From the NCBI RefSeq assembly GCF_014699135.1, contig NZ_JACOFT010000003.1:620001-684000 (forward strand): 64,000 bases of DNA. The letters run 5' to 3'. The translations under genes and the position numbers were made by a program. The notes beneath the pieces are model-generated. The model made no database searches. It had not been told where the DNA came from and saw nothing but the letters and a program-made list of their open reading frames with translations. Positions 1 to 43,453 of this stretch are shown here, piece after piece (position 1 is the first letter of the stretch; every line of letters starts with the position of its first letter). The DNA is from Cognatundibacterium aquatile. Lineage in GTDB: Bacteria; Pseudomonadota; Gammaproteobacteria; Burkholderiales; Burkholderiaceae_D.

Positions 1-2517
1 GCCGTGCATGCCAAACCAGAACAAAAACTGGAATTGCAAAACATCAGCCTGCGTGCGCAGCAGTTATCGACCGCGAAAGACGTCAAGCCAGCACAACTGA
101 AACTGAGTCTGGAAACAAAAGCCGATGAAAAAATCGGGTTTGACGGGCAATTGCAGATTTTTTCCTCTACGCTGAATGGCAAGCTTGCCATCAGCGATGT
201 GGCGCTCGCCAATTATCAGGCTTTTCTGAATCCGTTTTTGAAGGCGAATCTGAGTGGCAAACTGGATGCGGAATCCAGCGTCAGTCTGAAGGCTGGCGAA
301 TTTCAGCTTAGTAATTTATCGCTCAGACTGCGTGATCTGCTGCTGAAAGGGAACGCCAGTGACGGTAGCATTGCGCTCAAATCTTTTGCGCTGAACAAAA
401 CACTACTTGACTCCACGAACCGTGCGATACAAATGGGAACCGCGGAATTTGATGGTTTGCGGGCGGATATCCGGCGCGATAAATCGGCGACGATGCTGAT
501 GCAGAGCTGGTTGCCCGAGTCAGCTTCCTCTGCGACCAAAGGGAACGTCGTCAGAACTGCCAACGCTGAACAGCCACCTGCCAAGAGCGCAGCAGCTGCG
601 CCGTGGAAAATCAGCCTGAATCAATTTGATCTGAAAAATAGTGAAATCGATTTTCTCGATCAGTCGGTCACACCGGAAGTGAAATTAAACCTGAACAGCA
701 TCAGCCTGAATCTGGGGCAACTGAGCAGCGATCTCTCTAAAGACGTCAGCTTCCGTCTGCAATCGAAACTGAACCGGCGTTCCAAGCTGAATCTGGATGG
801 CAGTAGTTCTGCCGGTATGAAAAAAGTAAACGTGAATGTCGATACAGAGAGTTTGCCGATTGCGCGACTATCTTCGTATTTTTCGCAATTTCTGAATGTG
901 CAGATTGTTAAAGGTGGCGGCACTGCCAAGGGCAAGCTGGTACTGACAAATATCCTGGAAGCCGACCGTCAGTTTGATTACGACGGCATGCTGAGTCTGA
1001 ATAATTTTCAGATATTTGAAAATGGCACAGAGGAGGATTTTCTGGACTGGAAAGCGATATCGGCCGAAGGCATTCACGCGAACGTAGGAAAAACCAAGCA
1101 ACTGATTGATGTTAAAAAACTGAGCCTGAATGATTTTTTTGCGCGTCTGGTGTTGTCTGACAAGGCGCGCTTGAATTTACAGAATATTCTGGTGAGCCAA
1201 ACCGCGAAGGATGTACCTGCGAACGCAGTGCCGACGTCGAAAGAGATGACGCCGAAAACCACTGCAGGCCTTGCCGGTAGCACCACCGTGACGCAGAAAG
1301 TACCGGTCACCGGTACGCCATCCTCCGTCGTTATGCGCATAGGGCAAACCGTCATCACCGGTGGCAACGTAAACTTTACGGACAATTTCATACAACCGAA
1401 TTACCATGCAAACCTGACTGGCATCAGCGGTAGCATAGGCACGATTTCATCCGACAACCCACAAGTGGCAACGGTGGAACTGAATGGCAAAGTGGATGAT
1501 GACGCACCTTTGCTGATTTCAGGCAGCATGAATCCTTTATCCACACCGGTATTTCTGGATATTAAAGGCAGTGCGAACGGGATCGAGCTGACCAAGCTGA
1601 CGCCGTATGCGGCTAAATATGCGGGCTACGTGATTGAAAAAGGTAAATTGTCGGCTCAGGCAAGTTACAAAATAGAGAACCAGCAATTGACGGCTGAGAA
1701 CGAGGTGAGGCTGGATCAACTGACGTTTGGTGAGCGGGTGGACAGCCCGAGTGCGACCAAATTACCAGTGATGCTGGCAGTGGCGCTGTTGCGTGACAAC
1801 CAAGGCCGGATAACGATTAATTTACCGATCTCTGGCTCATTAGCCGACCCGCAGTTTTCTGTTAGCAGCATTATTTTTAAAGTGTTTGTGAACATCATTA
1901 CCAAGGCGGTGACGTCACCGTTTGCCTTACTGGGATCGATGTTTGGTGGTGGTGAAGAGCTGGCCTATCTTGAATTCAATCCCGGCAGTGCAGTTCTGAC
2001 GCCGGCGGCAACTGAAAAACTCGACAACCTGGCAAAAGCATTGAAAGAACGCACCAGTCTGCATCTGGATATTACAGGCCGTGTGGACGTCAAGAGTGAT
2101 ACTGAGGGCGTACGTCATGAAATGCTGGAAAATCGTTTGCGCGAAGCTAAATGGCGTGAACTTGGCCGGAAAAATCGCGGCATCAAAGCGGAGTCGCTGA
2201 CATTGACGGCAGACGAACGACATAAATTTCTGCAATCCTTATACGATGCTGCAAAATTCAATAAACCACGGAATGTGCTGGGGCTGGCTAAAACGCTGCC
2301 AGACGCAGAGGCGGAACAATTGCTATTGCAAAATCTGACGGTGGACACCGATGATTTGCGGGACTTGGCGCAAAGACGCGCAGATACTGTGCGCGATTAT
2401 CTCGAAGATGTGGCACTGGTGAGTCGCGAACGCATGTTCCTGATTGCCCCCAAACTGAATGCGGACGGCATCAAAGATAAGGGCGCTCCTAACCGCGTTG
2501 ATTTTTCATTGAAGTAA
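1..2517 (+). CDS. DUF748 (AsmA-like) protein, 5' end outside window
   Basis: The reading frame is open from the first base, so the N-terminus lies outside the window; about 838 codons are present, ending in TAA. The protein is rich in alternating hydrophobic/polar beta-strand sequence with long low-complexity linkers, as in the AsmA/DUF748 family of large envelope proteins that are anchored in the inner membrane and span the periplasm. The C-terminal part contains GEELAYLEFNPGSAVLTP near residue 655, the typical conserved end block of DUF748 proteins, followed by a helical tail. No transmembrane anchor is visible here, which agrees with truncation by the window edge. The family is linked to lipid transport between membranes, but this member's substrate cannot be read from sequence. 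About 150 nt separate it from the next gene, so it is probably its own unit. Confidence 0.8.
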   Translation, partial: AVHAKPEQKLELQNISLRAQQLSTAKDVKPAQLKLSLETKADEKIGFDGQLQIFSSTLNGKLAISDVALANYQAFLNPFLKANLSGKLDAESSVSLKAGEFQLSNLSLRLRDLLLKGNASDGSIALKSFALNKTLLDSTNRAIQMGTAEFDGLRADIRRDKSATMLMQSWLPESASSATKGNVVRTANAEQPPAKSAAAAPWKISLNQFDLKNSEIDFLDQSVTPEVKLNLNSISLNLGQLSSDLSKDVSFRLQSKLNRRSKLNLDGSSSAGMKKVNVNVDTESLPIARLSSYFSQFLNVQIVKGGGTAKGKLVLTNILEADRQFDYDGMLSLNNFQIFENGTEEDFLDWKAISAEGIHANVGKTKQLIDVKKLSLNDFFARLVLSDKARLNLQNILVSQTAKDVPANAVPTSKEMTPKTTAGLAGSTTVTQKVPVTGTPSSVVMRIGQTVITGGNVNFTDNFIQPNYHANLTGISGSIGTISSDNPQVATVELNGKVDDDAPLLISGSMNPLSTPVFLDIKGSANGIELTKLTPYAAKYAGYVIEKGKLSAQASYKIENQQLTAENEVRLDQLTFGERVDSPSATKLPVMLAVALLRDNQGRITINLPISGSLADPQFSVSSIIFKVFVNIITKAVTSPFALLGSMFGGGEELAYLEFNPGSAVLTPAATEKLDNLAKALKERTSLHLDITGRVDVKSDTEGVRHEMLENRLREAKWRELGRKNRGIKAESLTLTADERHKFLQSLYDAAKFNKPRNVLGLAKTLPDAEAEQLLLQNLTVDTDDLRDLAQRRADTVRDYLEDVALVSRERMFLIAPKLNADGIKDKGAPNRVDFSLK

Positions 2518-2669
2518 TCTGATCTCAGGCACAGCTTTTTATAACAACGATGATGCTGCGATTAAAGTCCTGCAGAACCGGATATCGTTCTTTGCTGACG
2601 GATTGTTTTGAGCATCATCTTGATTTATGCTGATCTGACGGGCGTAACAATTTTGTTTAAGGAGTGAGA

Positions 2670-3062
2670 ATGACATCTGCAAACCTGGTCAACATTTTGT
2701 ATGTTGAGGACGACTCCGATATACAGACGGTGGCGCAGATTGCCCTTGAAGTTGTTGGCGGCTTTGTTCTGAAGACCTGTAGTTCAGGCAGTCAGGCACT
2801 GTCAGAGGTGAAAGCGGGCTTTGTGCCGGATTTGCTGTTGCTCGATGTCATGATGCCCAATATGGATGGACCAACGACATTGGCAGAGTTACGTCAACTG
2901 CCCGTAACGGCGACGACGCCGGTGGTTTTTATGACGGCGAAAGTGCAGACCTCAGAATTGGAACTGTATTATTCCTTAGGTGCCATCGGCGTGATCGCTA
3001 AACCTTTTGATCCTATGGAATTGTCCGCACAAGTCGCTAAACTCTGGCAGGAAAGAAAATAG
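2670..3062 (+). CDS. single-domain CheY-like response regulator
   Basis: A 130-residue receiver domain with no output domain. The acidic pair is in YVEDDSD, the phospho-acceptor is Asp59 in LLLLDVMMPNMDG, and the conserved Lys is in the late AKPFD motif. ATG at 2670 is chosen because AAGGAG ends 6 nt upstream; a GTG at 2664 in the same frame overlaps that ribosome binding site. The stop codon abuts the ATG of the next gene (Hpt-REC-REC-GGDEF) with no gap, so the two are co-transcribed and probably partners: the Hpt domain of the neighbour could exchange phosphate with this receiver. That link is inferred from position, not shown by sequence. Confidence 0.88.
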   Translation: MTSANLVNILYVEDDSDIQTVAQIALEVVGGFVLKTCSSGSQALSEVKAGFVPDLLLLDVMMPNMDGPTTLAELRQLPVTATTPVVFMTAKVQTSELELYYSLGAIGVIAKPFDPMELSAQVAKLWQERK

Positions 3063-4715
3063 ATGTCAGAAAAAATGGATAACCTGCAAGAGAAACTGCG
3101 TAAGCTGGAAGCGCTTTTTTTGCAGAAATTACCCTCCCGGTTTGACGAGATCACTGGTGCATTAGGACAGTATTTGCACAACCCGCAGGACAAAGAGTCA
3201 CTGACGGCTTTGCATCGTCATCTGCATACGATGGCCGGTTCCGCAGGCACTTTCGGCTTTGAAGAGTTGGGTGTGCAGGCGCGGGTGTTTGAGTCGCGTC
3301 TGAAGCCATTATTAAGCGGCACAGAGTGGAGTCAGACTGAGCTGGACGATTACGCCCGTGATATTCGCGATTACTTTGCTGCCGCACTCAACAATCTCAA
3401 CAAGGAACATGCGCCGGGTGATATCGCATCCGCAGACGCGAGCGAAGTGGCGTCGTCCGATAATCAGTCGCGGCTGATTTATCTGGTCAATCAGGATTGT
3501 CGGCAAAATCAGGAAATTACGACCCAACTTGAGCATTTTGGTTACGAGACCATCAGCGTGGAACAGTCGAAAAATCTGGCTCTGGCGGTAGCGCGACGAC
3601 GCCCGGATGTGATTGTGATCGATATGGGATCTGCCGAAGATGGCACTGGCGGGGTCGAAGAAATAAAGAAAGTAGAACAACTGCAACGCTTGCGTATTCC
3701 AACGATTTTTATTTCGAAGTCGAGTAGTTTTGATTCTCGCCTGATGGCGGTGCACGCCAAGGGTGATGGCTACTTTACTAAGCCAGTCGATGTCGTCGAG
3801 CTGACTGAAAGAATCGATACCATCTTGCAGCGCGATGAGACGAAAGGCTACCGGATACTGATCGTCGATGATGATGTGGTGACGGCGAATTATTACGGTG
3901 AGATTTTGCGCAATGCCGGCATGATCGTGCAATTGCTGAATGAGCCAACCCGGATATTGTCTGTCATGACAGATTTCCGCCCTGAGCTGTTGCTGCTCGA
4001 TGTCTACATGCCATTGTGTAGCGGCATTGAATTGTCGCATCTGATTCGTCAGGACAATTCGTACGTGGATGTGCCTATCGTATTTTTATCCAGCGAGGCT
4101 GACCCACAGAAACAGCTGGAAGCAGTGCGTGCTGGTGCGGATGATTTCATTACCAAACCGGTGGCGCCGGATTACCTGATCTCGTCGCTGGCAACGCGTG
4201 CCGAGCGCTATCGTTCTTTGCGTGCGCTGATTATGCGCGACGGACTGACTGGCTTATATAACCATACTGCGATCAAAGAGCATCTTGCCGCCGAGATTTT
4301 GCAGGCGCATCGCAATGCGACGCCGCTGGCGTTGGCGATGATCGATCTCGATTATTTCAAGCAGGTGAACGACCAGCATGGGCATGCTGCCGGCGACCAT
4401 GTATTACGTATGTTGGCGCGTTTGTTGCGTCAGCGTCTGCGCCGTACAGATATCGTCGGGCGTTACGGTGGTGAAGAGTTTGCTGTTATTTTTCCGCATA
4501 CCGATGCAAGTACCGCACGCCGGGTGCTGGATCAGGTCCGCATTGCATTTGCGAAAATTCTTCAGCATTCAGAAAACAGGGAGTTTTCTTCAACGTTTTC
4601 TGCCGGGATTGCCGATCTGGAGTTATCTGGCGATGTCGATACCTTGTTTGATGCTGCCGATGCGGCGATGTACGTCTCCAAACAAAGCGGACGCAATTGC
4701 ATTACGATCGCCTGA
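3063..4715 (+). CDS. Hpt-REC-REC-GGDEF diguanylate cyclase
   Basis: A 550-residue cytoplasmic signalling protein. Residues about 10-110 form a histidine phosphotransfer domain (HTMAGSAG, probable phospho-His55). Residues about 138-250 form a first receiver with Asp187 in IVIDMGS; its surrounding motif is atypical. Residues about 263-380 form a canonical receiver with Asp313 in LLLLDVYMP and Lys in TKPV. Residues about 390-550 form a GGDEF domain with an intact active site GGEEF (469-473) and an RxxD inhibitory site (Arg460-Asp463) five residues upstream, so it should make cyclic di-GMP and be feedback-inhibited. The layout resembles PleD-type cyclases with an extra Hpt module. It follows the receiver gene directly. 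No transmembrane segment is seen, so input must come through phosphorelay. Confidence 0.9.
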   Translation: MSEKMDNLQEKLRKLEALFLQKLPSRFDEITGALGQYLHNPQDKESLTALHRHLHTMAGSAGTFGFEELGVQARVFESRLKPLLSGTEWSQTELDDYARDIRDYFAAALNNLNKEHAPGDIASADASEVASSDNQSRLIYLVNQDCRQNQEITTQLEHFGYETISVEQSKNLALAVARRRPDVIVIDMGSAEDGTGGVEEIKKVEQLQRLRIPTIFISKSSSFDSRLMAVHAKGDGYFTKPVDVVELTERIDTILQRDETKGYRILIVDDDVVTANYYGEILRNAGMIVQLLNEPTRILSVMTDFRPELLLLDVYMPLCSGIELSHLIRQDNSYVDVPIVFLSSEADPQKQLEAVRAGADDFITKPVAPDYLISSLATRAERYRSLRALIMRDGLTGLYNHTAIKEHLAAEILQAHRNATPLALAMIDLDYFKQVNDQHGHAAGDHVLRMLARLLRQRLRRTDIVGRYGGEEFAVIFPHTDASTARRVLDQVRIAFAKILQHSENREFSSTFSAGIADLELSGDVDTLFDAADAAMYVSKQSGRNCITIA

Positions 4716-4772
4716 GGTCTGAGGTTTGTTTTATGGCTGCCAGTCTTGCTGAGGAAAACGACTTCTTAAAAT

Positions 4773-4804
4773 AAAAAAGCCTGAACATCGTTCAGGCTTT
4801 TTTT
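4773..4804. terminator. bidirectional intrinsic terminator
   Basis: GCCTGAAC and GTTCAGGC form a perfect 8-bp stem around a 3-nt loop, with a run of A before and T after. It lies between the converging diguanylate cyclase gene and parC and can end transcription from both sides. Confidence 0.9.
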
Positions 4805-4832
4805 ATCGGTATCAGCTTAGCTCAGGCTTAAC

Positions 4833-7148
4833 TCAGCCCAGCTTCTGCAAGCTGCTGGCCCTGATTTTTGCTTCCAGCGGCTTGCCTTTGCGAGCACGTT
4901 TGTTGATGTGGACAGACAGGGCATTGGCGCTCAGATTCACTTCCTGCACTTTGCCACCACGTCCGGTTCCCGTTACCCTGACGCCTTTCTGGCTGATCGC
5001 CTGCGCCGCCAGCAGGGCTTCTTTTTCTTCGAGTTCCATCAGAATAACGCCGCGTCCACCGCTCGATAATTGCTTGATTTCATTCAGACCGAAGACCAGC
5101 AAACGGCCATTTTCAGACAAGCAGGCTATCGCGCTGGCATCTTCGCTGATGACCGCTGGTGGCAGCGGCAAATCGTTTTCTTCCAGCGTCATAAAGGCTT
5201 TGCCAGCCTTCATACGACCAACCATGTCACCCACTTTCGCGGTGAATCCATAACCGGCATCAGAGGCCAGCAACAAACCGGTGTCATTGTTACCTGCGAA
5301 GTAATGCAGAATCTTGGTGCCAGCCGCTAGATCGATCAGCGTCGTAATCGGCACACCGTCGCCACGCGCACCGGGCAGGGCGGCAACGGGGACAGAATAG
5401 ACTCTGCCGTTCGAGCCAAATACCAGTAAATGATCAACCTTGCGGCATTCAAACGTGCCATACAGGCTGTCACCCGCCTTGAACGTGAACTGGCTGGCTT
5501 CATGTCCGTGACCAGTGCGGGCGCGCACCCAGCCTTTATCCGAGATGACAACCGTGACTGGCTCATCGACCACTTTTTGTTCTACCGATGCGCGTACTGC
5601 TTCTTCTATCAGCGTGCGGCGTGCATCGCCAAATTGCTTTGCATCGGCTTCGATTTCTTTGATCAGCGTTTTCTTCATCGACGCAGGATTGTCGAGCAAA
5701 TCATGCAAGCCCGCTTTTTCTTTACGCAGCTCTGCCAACTCTTGCTGAATTTTAATTGCTTCCAGCCTTGCTAACTGGCGCAAACGAATTTCCAGGATAT
5801 CTTCCGCCTGCCGGTCGGATAAGCGGAAAGCCTGTATCAACGCGGGTTTCGGCTCATCCGACTCGCGGATGATGCGGATCACTTCATCGATATTGAGTAA
5901 AACTGCTTCGCGGCCTTCGAGAATATGAATGCGGTCATCGACTTTTTTCAGACGAAATTGGGTGCGACGTGTGACGGTCGTGAAACGGAATGCGATCCAC
6001 TCGCTGATGATATCGAGCAGACCTTTCTGGCGTGGGCGACCATCGCCACCGATCATCACCAGATTAATCGACGCCGAACTTTCCAGCGAGGTATGCGCGA
6101 GCAACATTTGCATGAACTCGGCCTGATCCTGATTTTTCGATTTTGGTTCCAGTACCAGTCGCACAGGTGCATCTTTGCCCGATTCATCACGCACCGTATC
6201 GAGTACCGACAAGATCACTTGCTTTAACGCGACCTGTTCGGGCGACAGTGTTTTTTTACCGGTTTTGATTTTCGGATTGGTCAGTTCTTCGATTTCTTCC
6301 AATACCTTTTGCGACGAGACGCCCGGCGGTAATTCGGTCACCACCGCTTGCCACTGACCGCGCGCCATGTCTTCTATTTTCCAGCGGGCGCGCACTTTCA
6401 TGCTGCCACGACCACTCGCATACATCTCCGCAATCGCCGATGCCGGCGTGATGATTTGACCGCCGCCGGGGAAATCCGGGCCGGGAATATATTCCATCAA
6501 CTCCGCCTGTTTCATGGCCGGGTTGCGGATCAGCGCGACGGCGGCTTTGGCGACTTCGGTCAGATTATGCGAAGGGATCTCCGTCGCCAGACCGACCGCG
6601 ATACCGGATGCACCATTCAGCAACACCATAGGCAAACGCGCCGGCAGCAGCTTGGGTTCTTCGGTGGTGCCGTCATAATTCGGCTGAAAATCGACGGTAC
6701 CCTGATCGATTTCATCCATCAGCAATTTGGCAATCGGCGTCAGGCGCGCTTCGGTGTATCGCATTGCCGCCGCACCATCGCCATCGCGCGAGCCGAAGTT
6801 ACCTTGTCCATCGATCAGCGGATAACGCAGCGAAAAATCCTGCGCCATCCGTACCAGTGCGTCATACACAGACTGATCGCCATGTGGATGCAGCTTACCG
6901 AGCACATCACCGACCACCGCAGCCGATTTACGCGGTTTGGCCGACGAATTCAGACCGAGTTCGTTCATCGCAAACAGGATGCGACGCTGCACCGGTTTCT
7001 GACCATCGCAGACGTCCGGCAAGGCGCGTCCTTTGACGACGGAAATTGCGTAATCAAGATAAGCACGTTCGGCGAAACTCGCCAGCGTCAGTGCTTCGCC
7101 ATCGCCTGGCGGCGGTGTCTGTTCAAATAAATTCGCTTGTTCGCTCAT
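4833..7148 (-). CDS. parC: DNA topoisomerase IV subunit A
   Basis: A 771-residue type IIA topoisomerase breakage-reunion subunit that decatenates replicated chromosomes with ParE. The catalytic tyrosine is Tyr131 in RYTEARLT. The quinolone-region motif [17 protein letters not shown] is present. The C-terminal part carries the beta-pinwheel repeats expected of ParC, and the length is close to that of E. coli ParC (about 750). ParC rather than GyrA is supported by the pairing with parE next door. It lies 164 nt downstream of parE on the same strand; a palindromic intergenic repeat sits in that gap, so the two genes may be transcribed together through the repeat or from separate promoters. Confidence 0.95.
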
Positions 7149-39408: not shown

Positions 39409-40134
39409 TTACATTCCGCCCCATGCTGCATTGATCGCCGCGATGGCCGCCAGACCGGCAGTTTCTGTGCGTAGAATTCGTGGTCCCATTGACAATGCGA
39501 TCACACCTTGTCTGGTCGCCATGTCTTCTTCCTCTTCAGTAAATCCACCCTCAGGACCTATCAGTAAGCTGACCGCCTGTGGGGCGCGATGTTTTGTCCA
39601 TTCGGCCAGCGATTGATCGGCACGCGGCGAAAGCATGATCCGTTGATGTATATCCTGTTGCCCCAGCCATTTTCCCAGATCCAGCGGTGCCGAAAGATGC
39701 GCAAGTCGATTACGACCCGATTGCTCGGCAGCGGCGACGATGATGCCTTGCCAGTGACTGAGTTTTTTTTCTGCACGCTCAGCCGACAAGCGCACGACGC
39801 AGCGTTGTGAAGCGAGCGGTTGAATCGACGAGATGCCCAGTTCCATGGCTTTTTCTATGATCCAGTCCATCTTGCTGCCTTCCGGTAAGGCTTGCGCCAG
39901 CGTCAGGCTGTAAGGCAGTTCAACTTCTTCTGGTAAAAATACTTTCAGTTCTGCGCTGGCCCGTTTCTTTGCGATATCGATGATGCTGGCAACATAGCAG
40001 CCTCCCTCGCCGTTAAACAGTTGTATGGTGTCTCCGGTTTGCAGACGTAAAACAAAAACATGATGTGCTACCGTTTCCGGCAAATCGATAACAGCACCAA
40101 CGGTAAGCGGAACAGGGCAGAAAAAACGTGGCAT
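39409..40134 (-). CDS. rsmE: 16S rRNA m3U1498 methyltransferase
   Basis: A 241-residue SPOUT-family methyltransferase. The N-terminal PUA-like part has HHVFVLRLQTGDTIQLFNGEG; the C-terminal knotted domain has KMDWIIEKAMELG, LLIGPEGGFTEEE and SMGPRILRTETAGLAAI, the SAM-binding knot loop. It methylates U1498 of 16S rRNA. Length matches E. coli RsmE (243). It starts 24 nt after the DUF350 gene on the same strand, so it may be read from the upstream polyamine-linked operon as well as from its own promoter. Confidence 0.95.
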   Translation of the reverse strand: MPRFFCPVPLTVGAVIDLPETVAHHVFVLRLQTGDTIQLFNGEGGCYVASIIDIAKKRASAELKVFLPEEVELPYSLTLAQALPEGSKMDWIIEKAMELGISSIQPLASQRCVVRLSAERAEKKLSHWQGIIVAAAEQSGRNRLAHLSAPLDLGKWLGQQDIHQRIMLSPRADQSLAEWTKHRAPQAVSLLIGPEGGFTEEEEDMATRQGVIALSMGPRILRTETAGLAAIAAINAAWGGM

Positions 40135-40158: not shown

Positions 40159-40566
40159 TTAATATGTCAGAGAGGCTGCATTGAGTAAGCCCATGCTCAG
40201 ACTGATAGCGCCAAGAAAAATACCTGAGGCGACTTTATTTTCCGGTATGTCCAGGACTAGTCCGGGTAACATGACTCTGGCCGCGAAATACGCTAACAGT
40301 TGTACTAGTAAAGCAATACAACCCCAGATCAGCATATCTTGCAGATTCACACTATTGGCAATTGCTGAAGCGAGGGCGATGCTATAGCCAAGTATTGAGC
40401 CGGATAAACTGGCGGCGGCAGCCATGTTACCAGAGCGTATCAGCGTGATTTCTTTGTAAGGGGTTATCCTGATATAAATTGTGACAAATAGCAGCAATAA
40501 AATCATGGATGAAATAAAGTGGCTGATAAATGCGGGCAGGGCGTAAGTCAGTAAATGTTCGCTCAT
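40159..40566 (-). CDS. DUF350 membrane protein
   Basis: A 135-residue inner-membrane protein with four hydrophobic segments (FISHFISSMILLLLFVTIYI, then near residues 45-65, 75-100 and 110-135), matching the DUF350/YjfL family. ATG at 40566 is used; a TTG at 40578 is in frame but overlaps the upstream gene. In E. coli, YjfL lies beside a DUF1190 protein (YjfM) and a GSP-synthase-like ligase (YjfC), the same trio as here. Its stop region is 24 nt from rsmE. Family function is not settled; the conserved gene company suggests it works at the membrane with the ligase. Confidence 0.85.
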   Translation of the reverse strand: MSEHLLTYALPAFISHFISSMILLLLFVTIYIRITPYKEITLIRSGNMAAAASLSGSILGYSIALASAIANSVNLQDMLIWGCIALLVQLLAYFAARVMLPGLVLDIPENKVASGIFLGAISLSMGLLNAASLTY

Positions 40567-40570
40567 GGTG

Positions 40571-41704
40571 TCAGTCAATAAAGTAGTGAGGGATGAAACG
40601 GCTGGTGTTTTTGGTGATTAATGTTTCGTCTTCCCGGATGCCTATACCGGCGGCTTCATCACCGACGACCCATGCGCCTATGGAGGTATAAGCGGGTGTG
40701 ATGCCATCGTCAAATTTTGGTTGCGGCGCATATGCCTGATAGACATACCCCTCCGCGCCATATTCCCCGGTAGTATGTAGAACTTCACCGTCGGCGTAAA
40801 TCGAGATATTTTCACCTTCACGTGAATACAAAGGTTTTTTGACGTGATTGCCGCTGATGCGCCATGCATCAAAATAGGCGGGCAGCAGATTCGGGTGATG
40901 CGGGAACAGTTCCCACAAAACTGGCAAAATGGCTTTGTTCGACAAAATCATTTTCCAGGCGGGCTCAATGATGGTCATTGGGCGGGTTAGTAAGTGCGCT
41001 GCAAATTCTTCACGACACAGCCATTCCCAAGGATAAAGTTTAAATAAATTCTGGATGCTGATATCAGCATCATCTACAAATACACCTTGTTTCTGATCCC
41101 AGCCCAACTGCTCAATTGCACATTGTTTCGTTGCAAAGCCCGCCTGGATAGCGGTGTCACGAAGATAGGAAAGGTTACCTTCATCCTCTTCATTTTCCGC
41201 CGCACAGGTGACGTGGAGTAAGCCTTTGCCGGGGAATTTTTTCCATTGAGTAATCAGTTTTTCATGTAAAGAGTTGAACTGGTCTGCATCAGGAAAGACA
41301 TCTTGCAACCAGTACCATTGCGCGACACTGGATTCGACCAGTCCGGTAGGCGTGTCTGCGTTGTACTCCAGCATCTTAGGTGCGCCGGAACCATCCCAGC
41401 TCAGGTCAAACCGGCCATACAGTGAAAACTCCTTTTCACGCCAGCTTTCTTCAACGAGCGACCAGAATTGCGCCGGAATCGCGAAACGATCTTGCATACC
41501 GTGCCGCACAACATGATCCACCGCTTGCAGCGACATCTGATGTAAATCCAGTGTTGCCTGCTCCAGTACGTCAATTTGTTCAGAGTTAAAGCAGTAGGCA
41601 TAGCGTTCGTCCCAATACAAACCATCAATCGAGTGATAGCTGAACCCCAGACTTTCAAATTGTTGTTGCCAGCCTGCTCTTGGCGTCAGTGAGGTGCGTA
41701 TCAT
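40571..41704 (-). CDS. glutathionylspermidine-synthase-like ATP-grasp ligase
   Basis: A 377-residue protein of the GSP_synth family (YgiC/YjfC-like). The ATP-grasp synthetase fold is recognised by SLYGRFDLSWDGSGAPKMLE, YNADTPTGLVESSVAQWYWL, KPLYSREGENI and IIEPAWKMILSNKAILPVLW. It lacks the N-terminal amidase domain of the bifunctional E. coli Gss. Relatives join the carboxyl of a glutathione- or peptide-like acceptor to an amine such as spermidine; the true substrates of the short YgiC type are not known. Its ATG overlaps the stop of the DUF1190 gene (TAATG), with GGAGGCGG upstream. It overlaps the next frame to the DUF350 gene, so it is in a tight operon behind speDE. Confidence 0.88.
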   Translation of the reverse strand: MIRTSLTPRAGWQQQFESLGFSYHSIDGLYWDERYAYCFNSEQIDVLEQATLDLHQMSLQAVDHVVRHGMQDRFAIPAQFWSLVEESWREKEFSLYGRFDLSWDGSGAPKMLEYNADTPTGLVESSVAQWYWLQDVFPDADQFNSLHEKLITQWKKFPGKGLLHVTCAAENEEDEGNLSYLRDTAIQAGFATKQCAIEQLGWDQKQGVFVDDADISIQNLFKLYPWEWLCREEFAAHLLTRPMTIIEPAWKMILSNKAILPVLWELFPHHPNLLPAYFDAWRISGNHVKKPLYSREGENISIYADGEVLHTTGEYGAEGYVYQAYAPQPKFDDGITPAYTSIGAWVVGDEAAGIGIREDETLITKNTSRFIPHYFID

Positions 41705-42180
41705 TATCCGCCTCCTGAGTGACCATGAGCCGTTCCACCGAAGCCGCCACGACTGACGCTGCGGCTTACACTTCGCCCCACCGCGTGATCGGGTTGTGCA
41801 CCTTGCGAGTTTTGTATGCCGAAATTTCGTTGCGCTGTTTCGCGGTTTCCCGGTGTGTAGTGAGGGCCGTAATATGAACCATTACCCATACTATGATAGC
41901 CACCCGAGGAACCTCCACCCGCATAGTGCGCTGCGCTGCTCGCGCTTGAACCTGTGTCGCTGATGTGGTTCAGGTTAGTGTTTGTCGTCTCTTCACATGC
42001 GTTTCTTTCGCCCCAGTCTTTGCGACAATCTTCAAGGCTTTGATATTGATCGCGAATGGTTGTTAATTCCTGTGGGCGATTGTCACTGCATGCCGTCAGA
42101 CTGGCCGACGTTGCCAGTAATAAAGGCAATGCATGGCCGACTCTTTTTTTACAGGGTGGCTTCCTTATTCCTGCGCTCAC
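41704..42180 (-). CDS. DUF1190 (YgiB/YjfM-like) lipoprotein
   Basis: A 158-residue protein whose N-terminus has a hydrophobic segment ending in the lipobox SLTAC (Cys about residue 31), so it should be a lipid-anchored envelope protein. Next comes SLEDCRKDWGERNACEE, the Cys-containing DUF1190 core, then a Gly/Ser/Tyr-rich region (AGGGSSGGYHSMGNGSYYGP) and a closing GGTAHGHSGGG. The GTG start at 42180 is chosen because AGGAG lies 5 nt upstream. E. coli ygiB-ygiC and yjfM-yjfC show the same pairing with the ligase. It is 13 nt after the speDE stop and overlaps the ligase start. Function unknown, but it is a candidate acceptor or envelope partner of the ligase. Confidence 0.83.
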   Translation of the reverse strand: MSAGIRKPPCKKRVGHALPLLLATSASLTACSDNRPQELTTIRDQYQSLEDCRKDWGERNACEETTNTNLNHISDTGSSASSAAHYAGGGSSGGYHSMGNGSYYGPHYTPGNRETAQRNFGIQNSQGAQPDHAVGRSVSRSVSRGGFGGTAHGHSGGG

Positions 42181-42193
42181 TTTTTCTCCTGTT

Positions 42194-43453
42194 TCAGCTC
42201 GTGGTTGGCATCAGTTTGCGCATGAAATTTGGCAATACAAATAGCGCATGATGTACTTCATCATTGTAATATTTTAGCAATTTAAGTTGGCGGTGTTCGA
42301 TTCTCTGCTTTACCGTTGACGCGCCCAGTGCTATTGGATCGATACCCTTGCTCGCAATTGCCATTCCCCATAATGCCCCGTATAAAGGTATGAACACTGA
42401 ATAAGGTCTCACGACCGGAAAGCTGACGAACAGTTTTCGTAAGGTGTCGCAATAACGTTGCGGGTGGTAGTAGGGGCTGCCGAGATGCATCACCAATATG
42501 CCGTTATCCGTCAATTTAGCCGCGCATGCTTGAAAGAACTCTTCCGTAATACAAGTCGCAGCGAGTGTGCTGCCATCGGGTGCCTGTGGATCGGTGAGGT
42601 CGAGAAAAATCAGATCATACAGTTCCTCGCATTTACGTACATAAGCGAAACCGTCAACATGGACGTGTCTGACCTTGTCGTGATCAAGACTTCCCTGATG
42701 AATTTCATGCAAATACTTTCTCGATATGCTGACGACAGCGGGGTCAATTTCACACAGGGTCAACGTTTCCAGGCTGGGATGTTTTAGCAGCTCTCTGCAT
42801 GAACCCCCGTCGCCGCCACCGATAATCAGTGCAGTTCTGGGGGCAGGATGCGTAATCGCGGCTGGATGGATGAGGCTCTCATGATAAAAAAATTCATCTT
42901 TTTCAGAAGTCATCATTGCGCCGTCAATCCGCATGAGTTTACCGAAGTCGGCGCTATCAGCGATTTCTATCTGTTGAAACTGACTGCGGGTTTGCAGTAA
43001 TGGTGTGGTTCGTGTGCTGTAAAAAGTGGATGAACTTAGTCGCTCAGTTGAAAGTGTCTCTGTTCCTGATGTTGCCGAGGTCGTTTGTCCTCGGGTAATC
43101 TGCTGGCGAGATACTGTATCCGGTTGAAAATGTCGTATCAGGCTATCGACGATGTATCTGGCTTTTTCGGAGTTGTCCTGATGGAAGTTGCAGACATAGA
43201 CATCAAGCGTCACGGCATTTTTTTCCGGCCAGGTGTGAATGGCGACGTGCGATTCGGCCAGCAATAAAGTCCCGGTCACACCGGCTGCACTGCCATCTGG
43301 ATTATTAAACGAGTGATATTTTTGTCCGACGATGGTCAGTCCTGCGTCTATTGTTATCTTTGTCAGTAATTTGCTTAATTGTTCCTGACACAGAAAAAAC
43401 TCGGTATCTGCTTTGCAATCAAAGCAATCGGCGGTCAGATGTAAGCCTTCCAT
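42194..43453 (-). CDS. SpeD-SpeE fusion: AdoMet decarboxylase/spermidine synthase
   Basis: A 419-residue fused enzyme. Residues 1-120 are an S-adenosylmethionine decarboxylase of the short bacterial/archaeal type: AESHVAIHTWPE gives the self-cleaving Ser68 that becomes the pyruvoyl cofactor, with His73 and Cys88 in DVYVCNF. After a Ser/Thr-rich linker (about 115-150), residues 155-419 form a spermidine synthase: MTSEKDEFFYHESLIHP, IGGGDGGSCRELLK (212-217 GGGDGG) and the catalytic Asp285 in LIFLDLTDP. One polypeptide could therefore make decarboxylated AdoMet and pass its aminopropyl group to a diamine. The start ATG at 43453 gives a normal SpeD N-terminus. It leads the operon with the DUF1190 lipoprotein, ATP-grasp ligase and DUF350 genes, and is divergent from tkt. 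Confidence 0.93.
   Translation of the reverse strand: MEGLHLTADCFDCKADTEFFLCQEQLSKLLTKITIDAGLTIVGQKYHSFNNPDGSAAGVTGTLLLAESHVAIHTWPEKNAVTLDVYVCNFHQDNSEKARYIVDSLIRHFQPDTVSRQQITRGQTTSATSGTETLSTERLSSSTFYSTRTTPLLQTRSQFQQIEIADSADFGKLMRIDGAMMTSEKDEFFYHESLIHPAAITHPAPRTALIIGGGDGGSCRELLKHPSLETLTLCEIDPAVVSISRKYLHEIHQGSLDHDKVRHVHVDGFAYVRKCEELYDLIFLDLTDPQAPDGSTLAATCITEEFFQACAAKLTDNGILVMHLGSPYYHPQRYCDTLRKLFVSFPVVRPYSVFIPLYGALWGMAIASKGIDPIALGASTVKQRIEHRQLKLLKYYNDEVHHALFVLPNFMRKLMPTTS

What the first reader, a model, noticed from the sequence alone, without database searches (positions are those of the whole stretch)
40159..43453. Polyamine-linked operon: SpeD-SpeE fusion, DUF1190 lipoprotein, ATP-grasp ligase, DUF350 membrane protein
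Four genes are joined by a 13-nt gap, a TAATG overlap and an overlap of frames, so they are one transcript. They would make an aminopropylated polyamine (fusion enzyme), ligate an amine to a carboxylate (GSP-synthase-like), and act at the envelope (lipoprotein with DUF1190, four-TM DUF350). E. coli has the ligase, DUF1190 and DUF350 genes together (yjfL-yjfM-yjfC) without the polyamine enzymes, so this version names a likely substrate. Hypothesis: the ligase attaches the polyamine to a peptide or protein acceptor, possibly the Gly/Ser-rich lipoprotein or a glutathione-like molecule, which then acts at the membrane.
Basis: partly seen in the sequence, partly recalled or inferred. Interest (0 to 1): 0.78.

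Follow-up and report, generated by a model that had tools for sequence, protein, structure and literature searches.

The report
Polyamine-tagging operon for a lipoprotein
A four-gene bacterial operon makes a polyamine, carries a ligase of a family that can join polyamines to peptides, and encodes a small lipoprotein whose protein end looks like the place where the polyamine is attached, which would give this family of ligases a natural target.

Summary
In detail: fused SpeD-SpeE, a DUF1190-like lipoprotein, a GSP_synth ligase and DUF350 form one tight minus-strand operon. Much of the setting is published: the ligase is closest to E. coli YgiC/YjfC, reported as peptide-spermidine ligases (title seen only), and operons of DUF350, DUF1190, ATP-grasp and AdoMetDC are described (PMC11237479). 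What I did not find in the held library is the acceptor signature. The hypervariable lipoprotein beside the ligase ends in R[G/S]GFG, a spacer, then two small residues: last residue G/S in 119 of 126 distinct tails against 85 of 469 control ORFs. In a phylum sample all 43 acceptor loci with the strict motif, and 7 with variants, lie within about 4 kb of a ligase; the other 8 profile matches have neither. I propose that the ligase joins a polyamine to the lipoprotein's C-terminal carboxylate. The polyamine-gene link is local: 2 of 80 many-phyla loci and four families of the window's order; 13 of 28 ligase genomes there lack AdoMetDC and a strong spermidine synthase. Caveats: predicted export, no docking by AlphaFold, some ligases without acceptor, no biochemistry.

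The parts
42194..43453 (-). SpeD-SpeE fusion (class 1b-type AdoMet decarboxylase + aminopropyltransferase), 419 aa; predicted pyruvoyl serine S68, with H73 and C88
   Evidence: Pfam PF02675 and PF01564; NCBIfam NF002010 298.5 bits over cut-off 260; only AdoMet_dc and only strong Spermine_synth in the genome
41704..42180 (-). DUF1190-like predicted lipoprotein (lipobox SLTAC, Cys31), proposed polyamine acceptor, 158 aa
   Evidence: Alignment with 19 relatives including E. coli YjfM and YgiB; Pfam DUF1190 below cut-off
41707..41751 (-). C-terminal tail RGGFG-GTAHGHSGGG of the lipoprotein (residues 144-158): proposed ligase recognition motif (41737-41751) and reactive C-terminal Gly carboxylate (codon 41707-41709)
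   Evidence: RxGxG columns invariant across 49 acceptors that are 14% identical on average; tail statistics; coupling to the ligase
40571..41704 (-). ATP-grasp ligase of the GSP_synth / YgiC-YjfC family, 377 aa; proposed peptide-polyamine ligase
   Evidence: Pfam GSP_synth 492.6 bits; PDB 7uk8 YgiC E 5e-105, 7uk6 YjfC E 2e-99; conserved R98, D100, E113, N115
40159..40578 (-). DUF350 (YjfL-like) small helical membrane protein; likely ATG start at 40566
   Evidence: Pfam DUF350 117.8 bits; AlphaFold model mean pLDDT 92.7, helices only

Best explanation
The operon is a protein-polyamination module. SpeD-SpeE makes spermidine (inferred from family). The ligase uses ATP to activate the C-terminal carboxylate of the neighbouring DUF1190-like lipoprotein precursor as an acyl phosphate and joins it to a polyamine amine, as GspS does with the C-terminal glycine of glutathione. 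The R[G/S]GFG near the C-terminus is the docking motif and the small C-terminal residues (commonest S-x-G-G-COOH) enter the active site. The modified, now more cationic lipoprotein is exported and acts at the envelope, with DUF350 as a membrane partner. Shown here: anatomy, family membership, acceptor-ligase coupling, tail conservation. From others: peptide-spermidine ligase activity of E. coli homologues. Inferred: that the tail is the substrate, that the carboxy end is the site, that the amine is spermidine, timing before export, and the envelope role.
For: Ligase homologues are annotated as peptide--spermidine ligases (title of Pederick 2023). Coupling: in 300 genomes of the order all 28 with the ligase have the acceptor profile, and of the other 272 only G382 matches, by a deletion scrap; the profile was built partly from these genomes. 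In a separate phylum sample 58 acceptor-profile loci were fetched: 47 have a ligase within about 3 kb (40 strict R[GS]G[FYW]G tail, 5 by a wider pattern, 2 other variants), 3 more with the strict tail have it about 3.6-3.7 kb away, the last 8 have neither tail nor ligase. Tail: R, G, G of RxGxG are the only invariant columns in 49 acceptors at 14% mean identity; E. coli YjfM and YgiB carry SRGGYG...GG and TRGGFG...GG. Last residue G/S in 119 of 126, position -2 in 117 of 125, tail interior 49%, control ORFs 85 of 469. Not a Shine-Dalgarno effect: both last residues G/S in 65 of 74 acceptors that end at the ligase start and in 22 of 26 that do not. Of 561 other ORFs of 100 aa or more in the many-phyla loci 8 have the motif near the end: 7 are the ORF next to the ligase, 1 the next but one.
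Against: The acceptor is predicted to be exported (lipobox-like in 74 of 103 by a simple pattern), so a cytoplasmic ligase must act before export. An AlphaFold model of an acceptor-ligase read-through left the tail disordered (block means 24-39). Ligases without a recognised acceptor exist: 6 of 109 loci, and in the class sample only 4 of the 7 GSP_synth genomes matched the acceptor profile: G010 (a fragment), G036 (a 673-aa frame) and G074 did not, and in G141 the match is on another contig than the ligase. Some tails end in Glu (6 of 103) or lack strict RxGxG. Thirteen ligase genomes have no AdoMet_dc, at most weak Spermine_synth hits and no nspC over its cut-off, so self-made spermidine is unlikely to be the amine everywhere (homospermidine synthases and uptake were not tested). 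Conserved residues can also mean docking without modification. No biochemical test.
Confidence: 0.45

Rival explanations
1. The conserved tail docks on the ligase as a regulator or scaffold, while the real product is a small peptide-polyamine conjugate; the lipoprotein reports envelope state to the ligase and is itself not modified.
For: The coupling and tail conservation would look the same; trypanothione synthetase and GspS, the next solved relatives after YgiC/YjfC, make small conjugates.
Against: Docking alone does not explain why the last two residues at the free carboxy end are G/S in over 90% of tails while the interior is 49% G/S.
Confidence: 0.25
2. The tail is a C-terminal sorting or anchoring signal read by envelope proteins, and ligase and lipoprotein are linked only by shared regulation.
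For: The protein is predicted to be exported; other C-terminal sorting tags exist (recalled); some ligases stand without an acceptor.
Against: The acceptor depends on the ligase: no strict-tailed acceptor without a ligase within about 4 kb among the 58 phylum-sample loci. The tail persists where DUF350 is absent (G223: no DUF350 at E <= 0.001; acceptor tail TRGGFG, L090).
Confidence: 0.12
3. The ligase modifies the acceptor, but the amine is not spermidine in general (putrescine, homospermidine or another amine); SpeD-SpeE sits beside it by ancestral gene order at the transketolase locus rather than as a dedicated supplier. (This can hold together with the best explanation, in which the acceptor and site are the main claim.)
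For: 13 of 28 ligase genomes lack AdoMetDC, strong SpeE and an nspC over cut-off; SpeDE is the only such gene in the genome; G382 lost the ligase and most of DUF1190 and DUF350 but kept SpeDE; G224 keeps SpeDE and DUF350 beside transketolase without a ligase.
Against: AdoMetDC and ligase lie within about 8 kb in 10 of 15 genomes that have both, across four families; E. coli homologues are named spermidine ligases.
Confidence: 0.35

Closest known systems
E. coli YgiC and YjfC with YgiB, YjfM, YjfL
   Same: Ligase family (PDB 7uk8, 7uk6), DUF1190 gene directly upstream of the ligase, tail RGG[F/Y]G...GG, DUF350 in the yjf operon
   Different: No AdoMetDC or spermidine synthase beside them; the yjf genes also include PspA-family YjfJ, DUF2170 YjfI and DUF2491 YjfK
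PspA/CesT-Tir operons with ATP-grasp, DUF350, DUF1190 and AdoMetDC variants (Ravi et al. 2024, PMC11237479, passages and section 19 read)
   Same: Joins ATP-grasp of the GspS type, YjfL/DUF350 and DUF1190; variants with AdoMetDC; proposes a polyamine-membrane link
   Different: Here a SpeD-SpeE fusion is in the operon and there is no PspA, CesT/Tir, channel or DUF2491 gene among the four; the passages seen do not mention a C-terminal tail or an acceptor role
Glutathionylspermidine synthetase/amidase (GspS) and trypanothione synthetase
   Same: ATP-grasp domain; the R/D/E/N positions 316, 318, 330, 332 of GspS are kept; an acidic run lies at E391-E392 (residue roles recalled)
   Different: No amidase domain; positions S335, S337 and D610 of GspS differ
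AdoMetDC-aminopropyltransferase fusions of Ca. Pelagibacter (PMC11107197, passages read)
   Same: N-terminal class 1b AdoMetDC fused to an aminopropyltransferase
   Different: The Pelagibacter fusions make spermidine and spermine/thermospermine in E. coli; the product here is untested, and the operon context differs

Membership tests
GSP_synth / YgiC-YjfC ligase family | Full-length GSP_synth domain | tested here: met
   492.6 bits over 371 of 371 positions; 7uk8 E 5e-105
GSP_synth / YgiC-YjfC ligase family | Conserved ATP/Mg catalytic positions (R98, D100, E113, N115, roles recalled) | tested here: met
   Invariant in 17 aligned ligases and aligned with GspS R316, D318, E330, N332
GSP_synth / YgiC-YjfC ligase family | Peptide-spermidine ligase activity | not testable with these tools
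   Needs purified enzyme
Glutathionylspermidine synthetase/amidase | Bifunctional protein with N-terminal amidase; NCBIfam PRK10507 cut-off | tested here: not met
   377 aa with one domain; 168 bits against a cut-off of 882
DUF1190 (PF06693) | Pfam gathering score | tested here: not met
   15.9 bits against 22
DUF1190-like ligase partner (as defined here) | N-terminal signal segment, two conserved Cys, RxGxG near the C-terminus, small last residues, ligase next door | tested here: met
   Y46, C52, C62, R144, G146, G148 invariant with YjfM and YgiB; ends SGGG, TAATG overlap with the ligase
AdoMetDC class 1b | Pyruvoyl Ser, His at +5, Cys at +20 (T. maritima S63, H68, C83 per PMC10407285) | tested here: met
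   S68, H73, C88 counted in the translation (positions)
Spermidine synthase (SpeE) | Spermine_synth domain and an equivalog cut-off | tested here: met
   147.5 bits; NF002010 298.5 over 260; TIGR00417 234.4 falls below its 249.55
DUF350 (YjfL) | Pfam gathering score | tested here: met
   117.8 over 26 bits
PspA/CesT-Tir polyamine operon group | PspA and CesT/Tir genes in the operon | tested here: not met
   The operon holds four genes; direct neighbours are an RNA methyltransferase (RsmE-like) and a transketolase. The rest of the genome was not searched for PspA

The most novel reading that the evidence does not exclude
A widespread bacterial protein modification: C-terminal polyamination of a dedicated, hypervariable lipoprotein family, recognised by an RGGFG...S-x-G-G-COOH tail. 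It would be found in at least Pseudomonadota, Acidobacteriota, Bacteroidota, Actinomycetota, Nitrospirota, Verrucomicrobiota and Planctomycetota (loci), with YgiB and YjfM as the natural substrates of YgiC and YjfC, and an operon such as this one making its own polyamine.
Probability: 0.4. Interest if true: 0.85.

Novelty: new variant of a known kind. Interest (0 to 1): 0.64.

Why it matters
As far as the held papers show, the natural acceptors of the YgiC/YjfC ligases are unknown. A conserved C-terminal tail on the gene product that nearly always accompanies these ligases names one acceptor and one exact site, testable in a laboratory E. coli strain by mass spectrometry. If true, bacteria modify an envelope lipoprotein with a polyamine, which would link polyamine metabolism to the cell surface through a defined chemical bond.

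Tried and rejected
Rejected: (1) tail glycines conserved only as a Shine-Dalgarno for the ligase. In the window the codons GGA GGC GGA TAA TG do hold GGAGG, but the two small last residues are as common where the acceptor does not end at the ligase start (22 of 26 against 65 of 74) and most Gly codons there are GGC. (2) A dedicated second polyamine pathway: SpeDE is the only AdoMetDC and only strong SpeE in the genome. (3) SpeDE-ligase linkage as the general rule: 2 of 80 many-phyla loci by my HMM labels (flanks of up to 5 kb, complete in 47 of 80; L142 is the same genome as G293 of the order sample). In the ligase tree (110 rows, quick method) the 11 linked rows lie within one 30-row clade and need 5 changes.

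Rows dropped: L142 (same genome as L070) in the tree and tail counts; L091 (G434, ligase interrupted by a stop) and L084 (my caller let an overlapping frame win) had no full-length ligase called and are not among the 109; L217 had no ligase called, hence 79. L144 and L075 are the same locus and both are among the 109. The tail patterns differ between calls: R[GSA][GA][FYW]G, wider, wider, strict (one search also allows Ala at the second place). Control ORFs come from a simple longest-ORF caller and may include false genes.
Full report
WHAT IS THERE. The four genes are real and in the order stated, on the minus strand: SpeD-SpeE fusion 43453-42194, DUF1190-like lipoprotein 42180-41704, ligase 41704-40571, DUF350 40578-40159. 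The lipoprotein falls below Pfam's DUF1190 cut-off (15.9 against 22 bits) but aligns with E. coli YjfM and YgiB over two conserved cysteines and the C-terminal motif. SpeD keeps S68, H73 and C88, which match the processing and catalytic residues S63, H68, C83 of T. maritima AdoMetDC named in PMC10407285 (passages). Transketolase lies divergently upstream; an RsmE-like methyltransferase gene follows 24 nt downstream on the same strand.

THE FUSION IS THE HOUSEHOLD SPERMIDINE PATHWAY. The window's genome has one AdoMet_dc match and one strong Spermine_synth match, both in this gene; three further Spermine_synth matches are weak (E 8e-10 to 5e-9). Two genomes of the same genus lack AdoMet_dc and ligase.

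HOW FAR THE FOUR TRAVEL TOGETHER. In 300 genomes of the order GSP_synth is in 28, AdoMet_dc in 103, DUF350 in 78 and the DUF1190-like profile in 29. Both ligase and AdoMet_dc are in 15 genomes: within about 8 kb in 10 (G000, G164, G200, G210, G254, G293, G316, G330, G391, G421; family codes f1, f145, f152, f164), on separate contigs in 3 (G304, G361, G369), far apart in 2 (G180, G420). The decarboxylase sits in a long frame (fusion) in the window and G200 and in a short one in the others; gene orders are. In 80 loci from many phyla, fetched by the ligase alone, SpeD/SpeE labels occur in only two, L141 (82% identical ligase) and L142; flanks were up to 5 kb and complete in 47 of 80. In a ligase tree the 11 SpeDE-linked rows fall in one 30-row clade and need 5 changes (quick method). 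So the polyamine genes are a local addition; ligase plus lipoprotein is the core, DUF350 a frequent third (27 of 28 ligase genomes of the order; labelled in 50 of the 80 loci).

LOSS EVENTS. In G382 a deletion joins about the first 34 residues of the DUF1190 gene to about the last 30 of DUF350, the ligase is gone, and SpeDE stays open. G224 has transketolase, SpeDE and DUF350 without DUF1190 or ligase. Among the 26 order-sample genomes that have a strong DUF350 (E < 1e-25) and no ligase, I count 19 with DUF350 within 10 kb of AdoMet_dc (read by eye), in line with the AdoMetDC-DUF350 operons in print.

THE TAIL. The ORF beside the ligase is hypervariable but ends alike. In 20 aligned proteins (22% mean identity) the invariant columns are Y46, C52, C62, R144, G146, G148; in 49 from many phyla (14%) only R, G and G of RxGxG remain invariant, with F nearly so. 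Motif R[GSA][GA][FYW]G near the end in 63 of 79 many-phyla loci, 11 more with a DUF1190-like protein and variant tails, 5 without either (one of the 5, L190, shows an upstream frame ending PSGGFG...SGGS). Over all fetched loci 103 of 109 with a full-length ligase have an acceptor by a wider pattern. In 133 tails (126 distinct: RGGFG 110, RSGFG 14, RGGWG 1, RSGWG 1) the last residue is G/S in 119 of 126, position -2 in 117 of 125 (Gly 98), position -4 Ser in 74 of 124; tail interior 49% G/S; last residue of other ORFs G/S in 85 of 469. Acidobacteriota and a few others end in Glu. E. coli YjfM ends SRGGYGRSSSARGHWGG and YgiB TRGGFG...RSMGG. Pfam DUF1190 matches only 17 of 49 and NCBIfam's DUF1190 model 18 of 49 acceptors at E <= 0.01.

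CONTROLS ON THE TAIL. (a) Not the ligase's ribosome-binding site: both last residues G/S in 65 of 74 acceptors that end at the ligase start and 22 of 26 others. (b) Not generic: 8 of 561 other ORFs of 100 aa or more had the motif near the end, and these are the unlabelled ORF next to the ligase in 7 loci and the next but one in L220. (c) Not selected by my sampling of ligases: in a phylum sample of 329 genomes searched with the acceptor profile alone, 58 genomes matched; I fetched 58 loci from 57 of them (own genome left out, one genome twice). 47 have a ligase match within the fetched stretch of about 3 kb on each side (40 with the strict R[GS]G[FYW]G tail, 5 by the wider pattern, 2 with other variants); 3 more with the strict tail have it about 3.6-3.7 kb away; the remaining 8 have neither tail nor ligase and are weak matches. 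The profile itself was built from ligase-adjacent proteins, which favours like proteins but not the neighbourhood.

WHERE THE COUPLING FAILS. It holds from acceptor to ligase better than the other way. In the class sample of 143 genomes 7 have GSP_synth but only 4 match the acceptor profile: G010 (a 29.5-bit fragment), G036 (a 673-aa frame, perhaps a GspS-type enzyme) and G074 (a very long branch in the tree) do not, and in G141 the acceptor match lies on another contig. Six of 109 loci have no acceptor (L093, L095, L153, L168, L175, L195).

MECHANISM. The ligase is closest to YgiC (7uk8, E 5e-105) and YjfC (7uk6, E 2e-99), which RefSeq names peptide--spermidine ligases. [quoted passage not shown] the paper is not held. 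PMC12506659 (passages) notes that YgiC does not have the glutathionylspermidine synthase activity of Gsp. Against GspS (positions counted from the alignment) the ligase keeps R98, D100, E113, N115 at R316, D318, E330, N332, has the acidic run E172-E173-D174 at E391-E392 (one-residue gap) and R357 at R598, but T118/T120 at S335/S337 and R369 at D610; what these GspS residues do is recalled, not from a call. GspS joins spermidine to the C-terminal glycine of glutathione (established knowledge). The simplest reading is that this ligase does the same to the C-terminal glycine of the lipoprotein, docking on RGGFG. Not shown: any modification, the site, the amine, the order of ligation and export.

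WHAT SPEAKS AGAINST. The acceptor carries a lipobox-like site in 74 of 103 by a simple pattern (several of the 29 misses look like wrong start calls) and otherwise often a hydrophobic N-terminal segment, so its C-terminus should end outside the cytoplasm. AlphaFold of the L094 acceptor-ligase read-through gave a confident ligase but left the tail at block means of 24-39. Thirteen ligase genomes (G154, G193, G201, G223, G266, G272, G321, G322, G339, G383, G404, G413, G434) have no AdoMet_dc, at most weak Spermine_synth (best E 7e-14, none in G339) and no nspC over its cut-off, so the amine there is something else, imported, or made by a route not tested.

WHAT IS KNOWN. Ravi et al. 2024 (PMC11237479; passages and section 19 read) describe operons that join a GspS-type ATP-grasp, DUF350, DUF1190 ('metal-chelating lipoprotein') and variants with AdoMetDC, and cite Li et al. 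2019 for the AdoMetDC linkage. Fused AdoMetDC-aminopropyltransferases are known (Ca. Pelagibacter, PMC11107197, passages). I found no mention of the RGGFG tail or of DUF1190 as acceptor in the listings or in the passages read; the unheld papers may differ.

VERDICT. Observation confirmed; interpretation partly supported, and sharpened: the polyamine-gene link is local, while the lipoprotein-ligase pair with its C-terminal signature is general and names a testable acceptor site.

Noticed in passing
L313 (G382) 3726-3937; L102 12728-12939: Deletion scar: N-terminus of the DUF1190 gene runs into the C-terminus of DUF350, ligase absent, SpeDE intact nearby.
   Followed up: partly
L314 (G224) 1870-5958: Transketolase-like gene, SpeDE fusion and DUF350 side by side without DUF1190 or ligase, with the same kind of neighbour as in the window.
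   Followed up: partly
L220 and L088: Two tailed acceptor-like genes near one ligase; in L088 the second has a less regular sequence but still ends RGGFG...SGGG.
   Followed up: no
L180, L181, L182, L198, L166, L210, L305: Acceptor tails that end in Glu instead of Gly/Ser (Acidobacteriota and a few others), which may mean another ligation site.
   Followed up: no
L267, L289, L309, L310, L312: Arrangement in one family of another class (f216): DUF350 and tailed acceptor on one strand, ligase about 2.5-4 kb away on the other.
   Followed up: partly
L184, L188, L209, L270, L278, L274: Tails with the last Gly of the motif changed (RGGFT, RGGFM, RGGFK); in L184, L188 and L209 (Cupriavidus, Trinickia) the acceptor lies downstream of the ligase.
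   Followed up: no
L316, L317: Same-order loci with a SpeE-like protein of 503 aa with a hydrophobic N-terminus, DUF350 and a stand-alone SpeD, resembling the second operon group of PMC11237479.
   Followed up: no
window 41704-41718: The last codons of the lipoprotein gene (GGA GGC GGA TAA TG) also hold a Shine-Dalgarno for the ligase.
   Followed up: yes
window 39409-40134: RsmE-like gene starts 24 nt after DUF350 on the same strand and may share the transcript.
   Followed up: no
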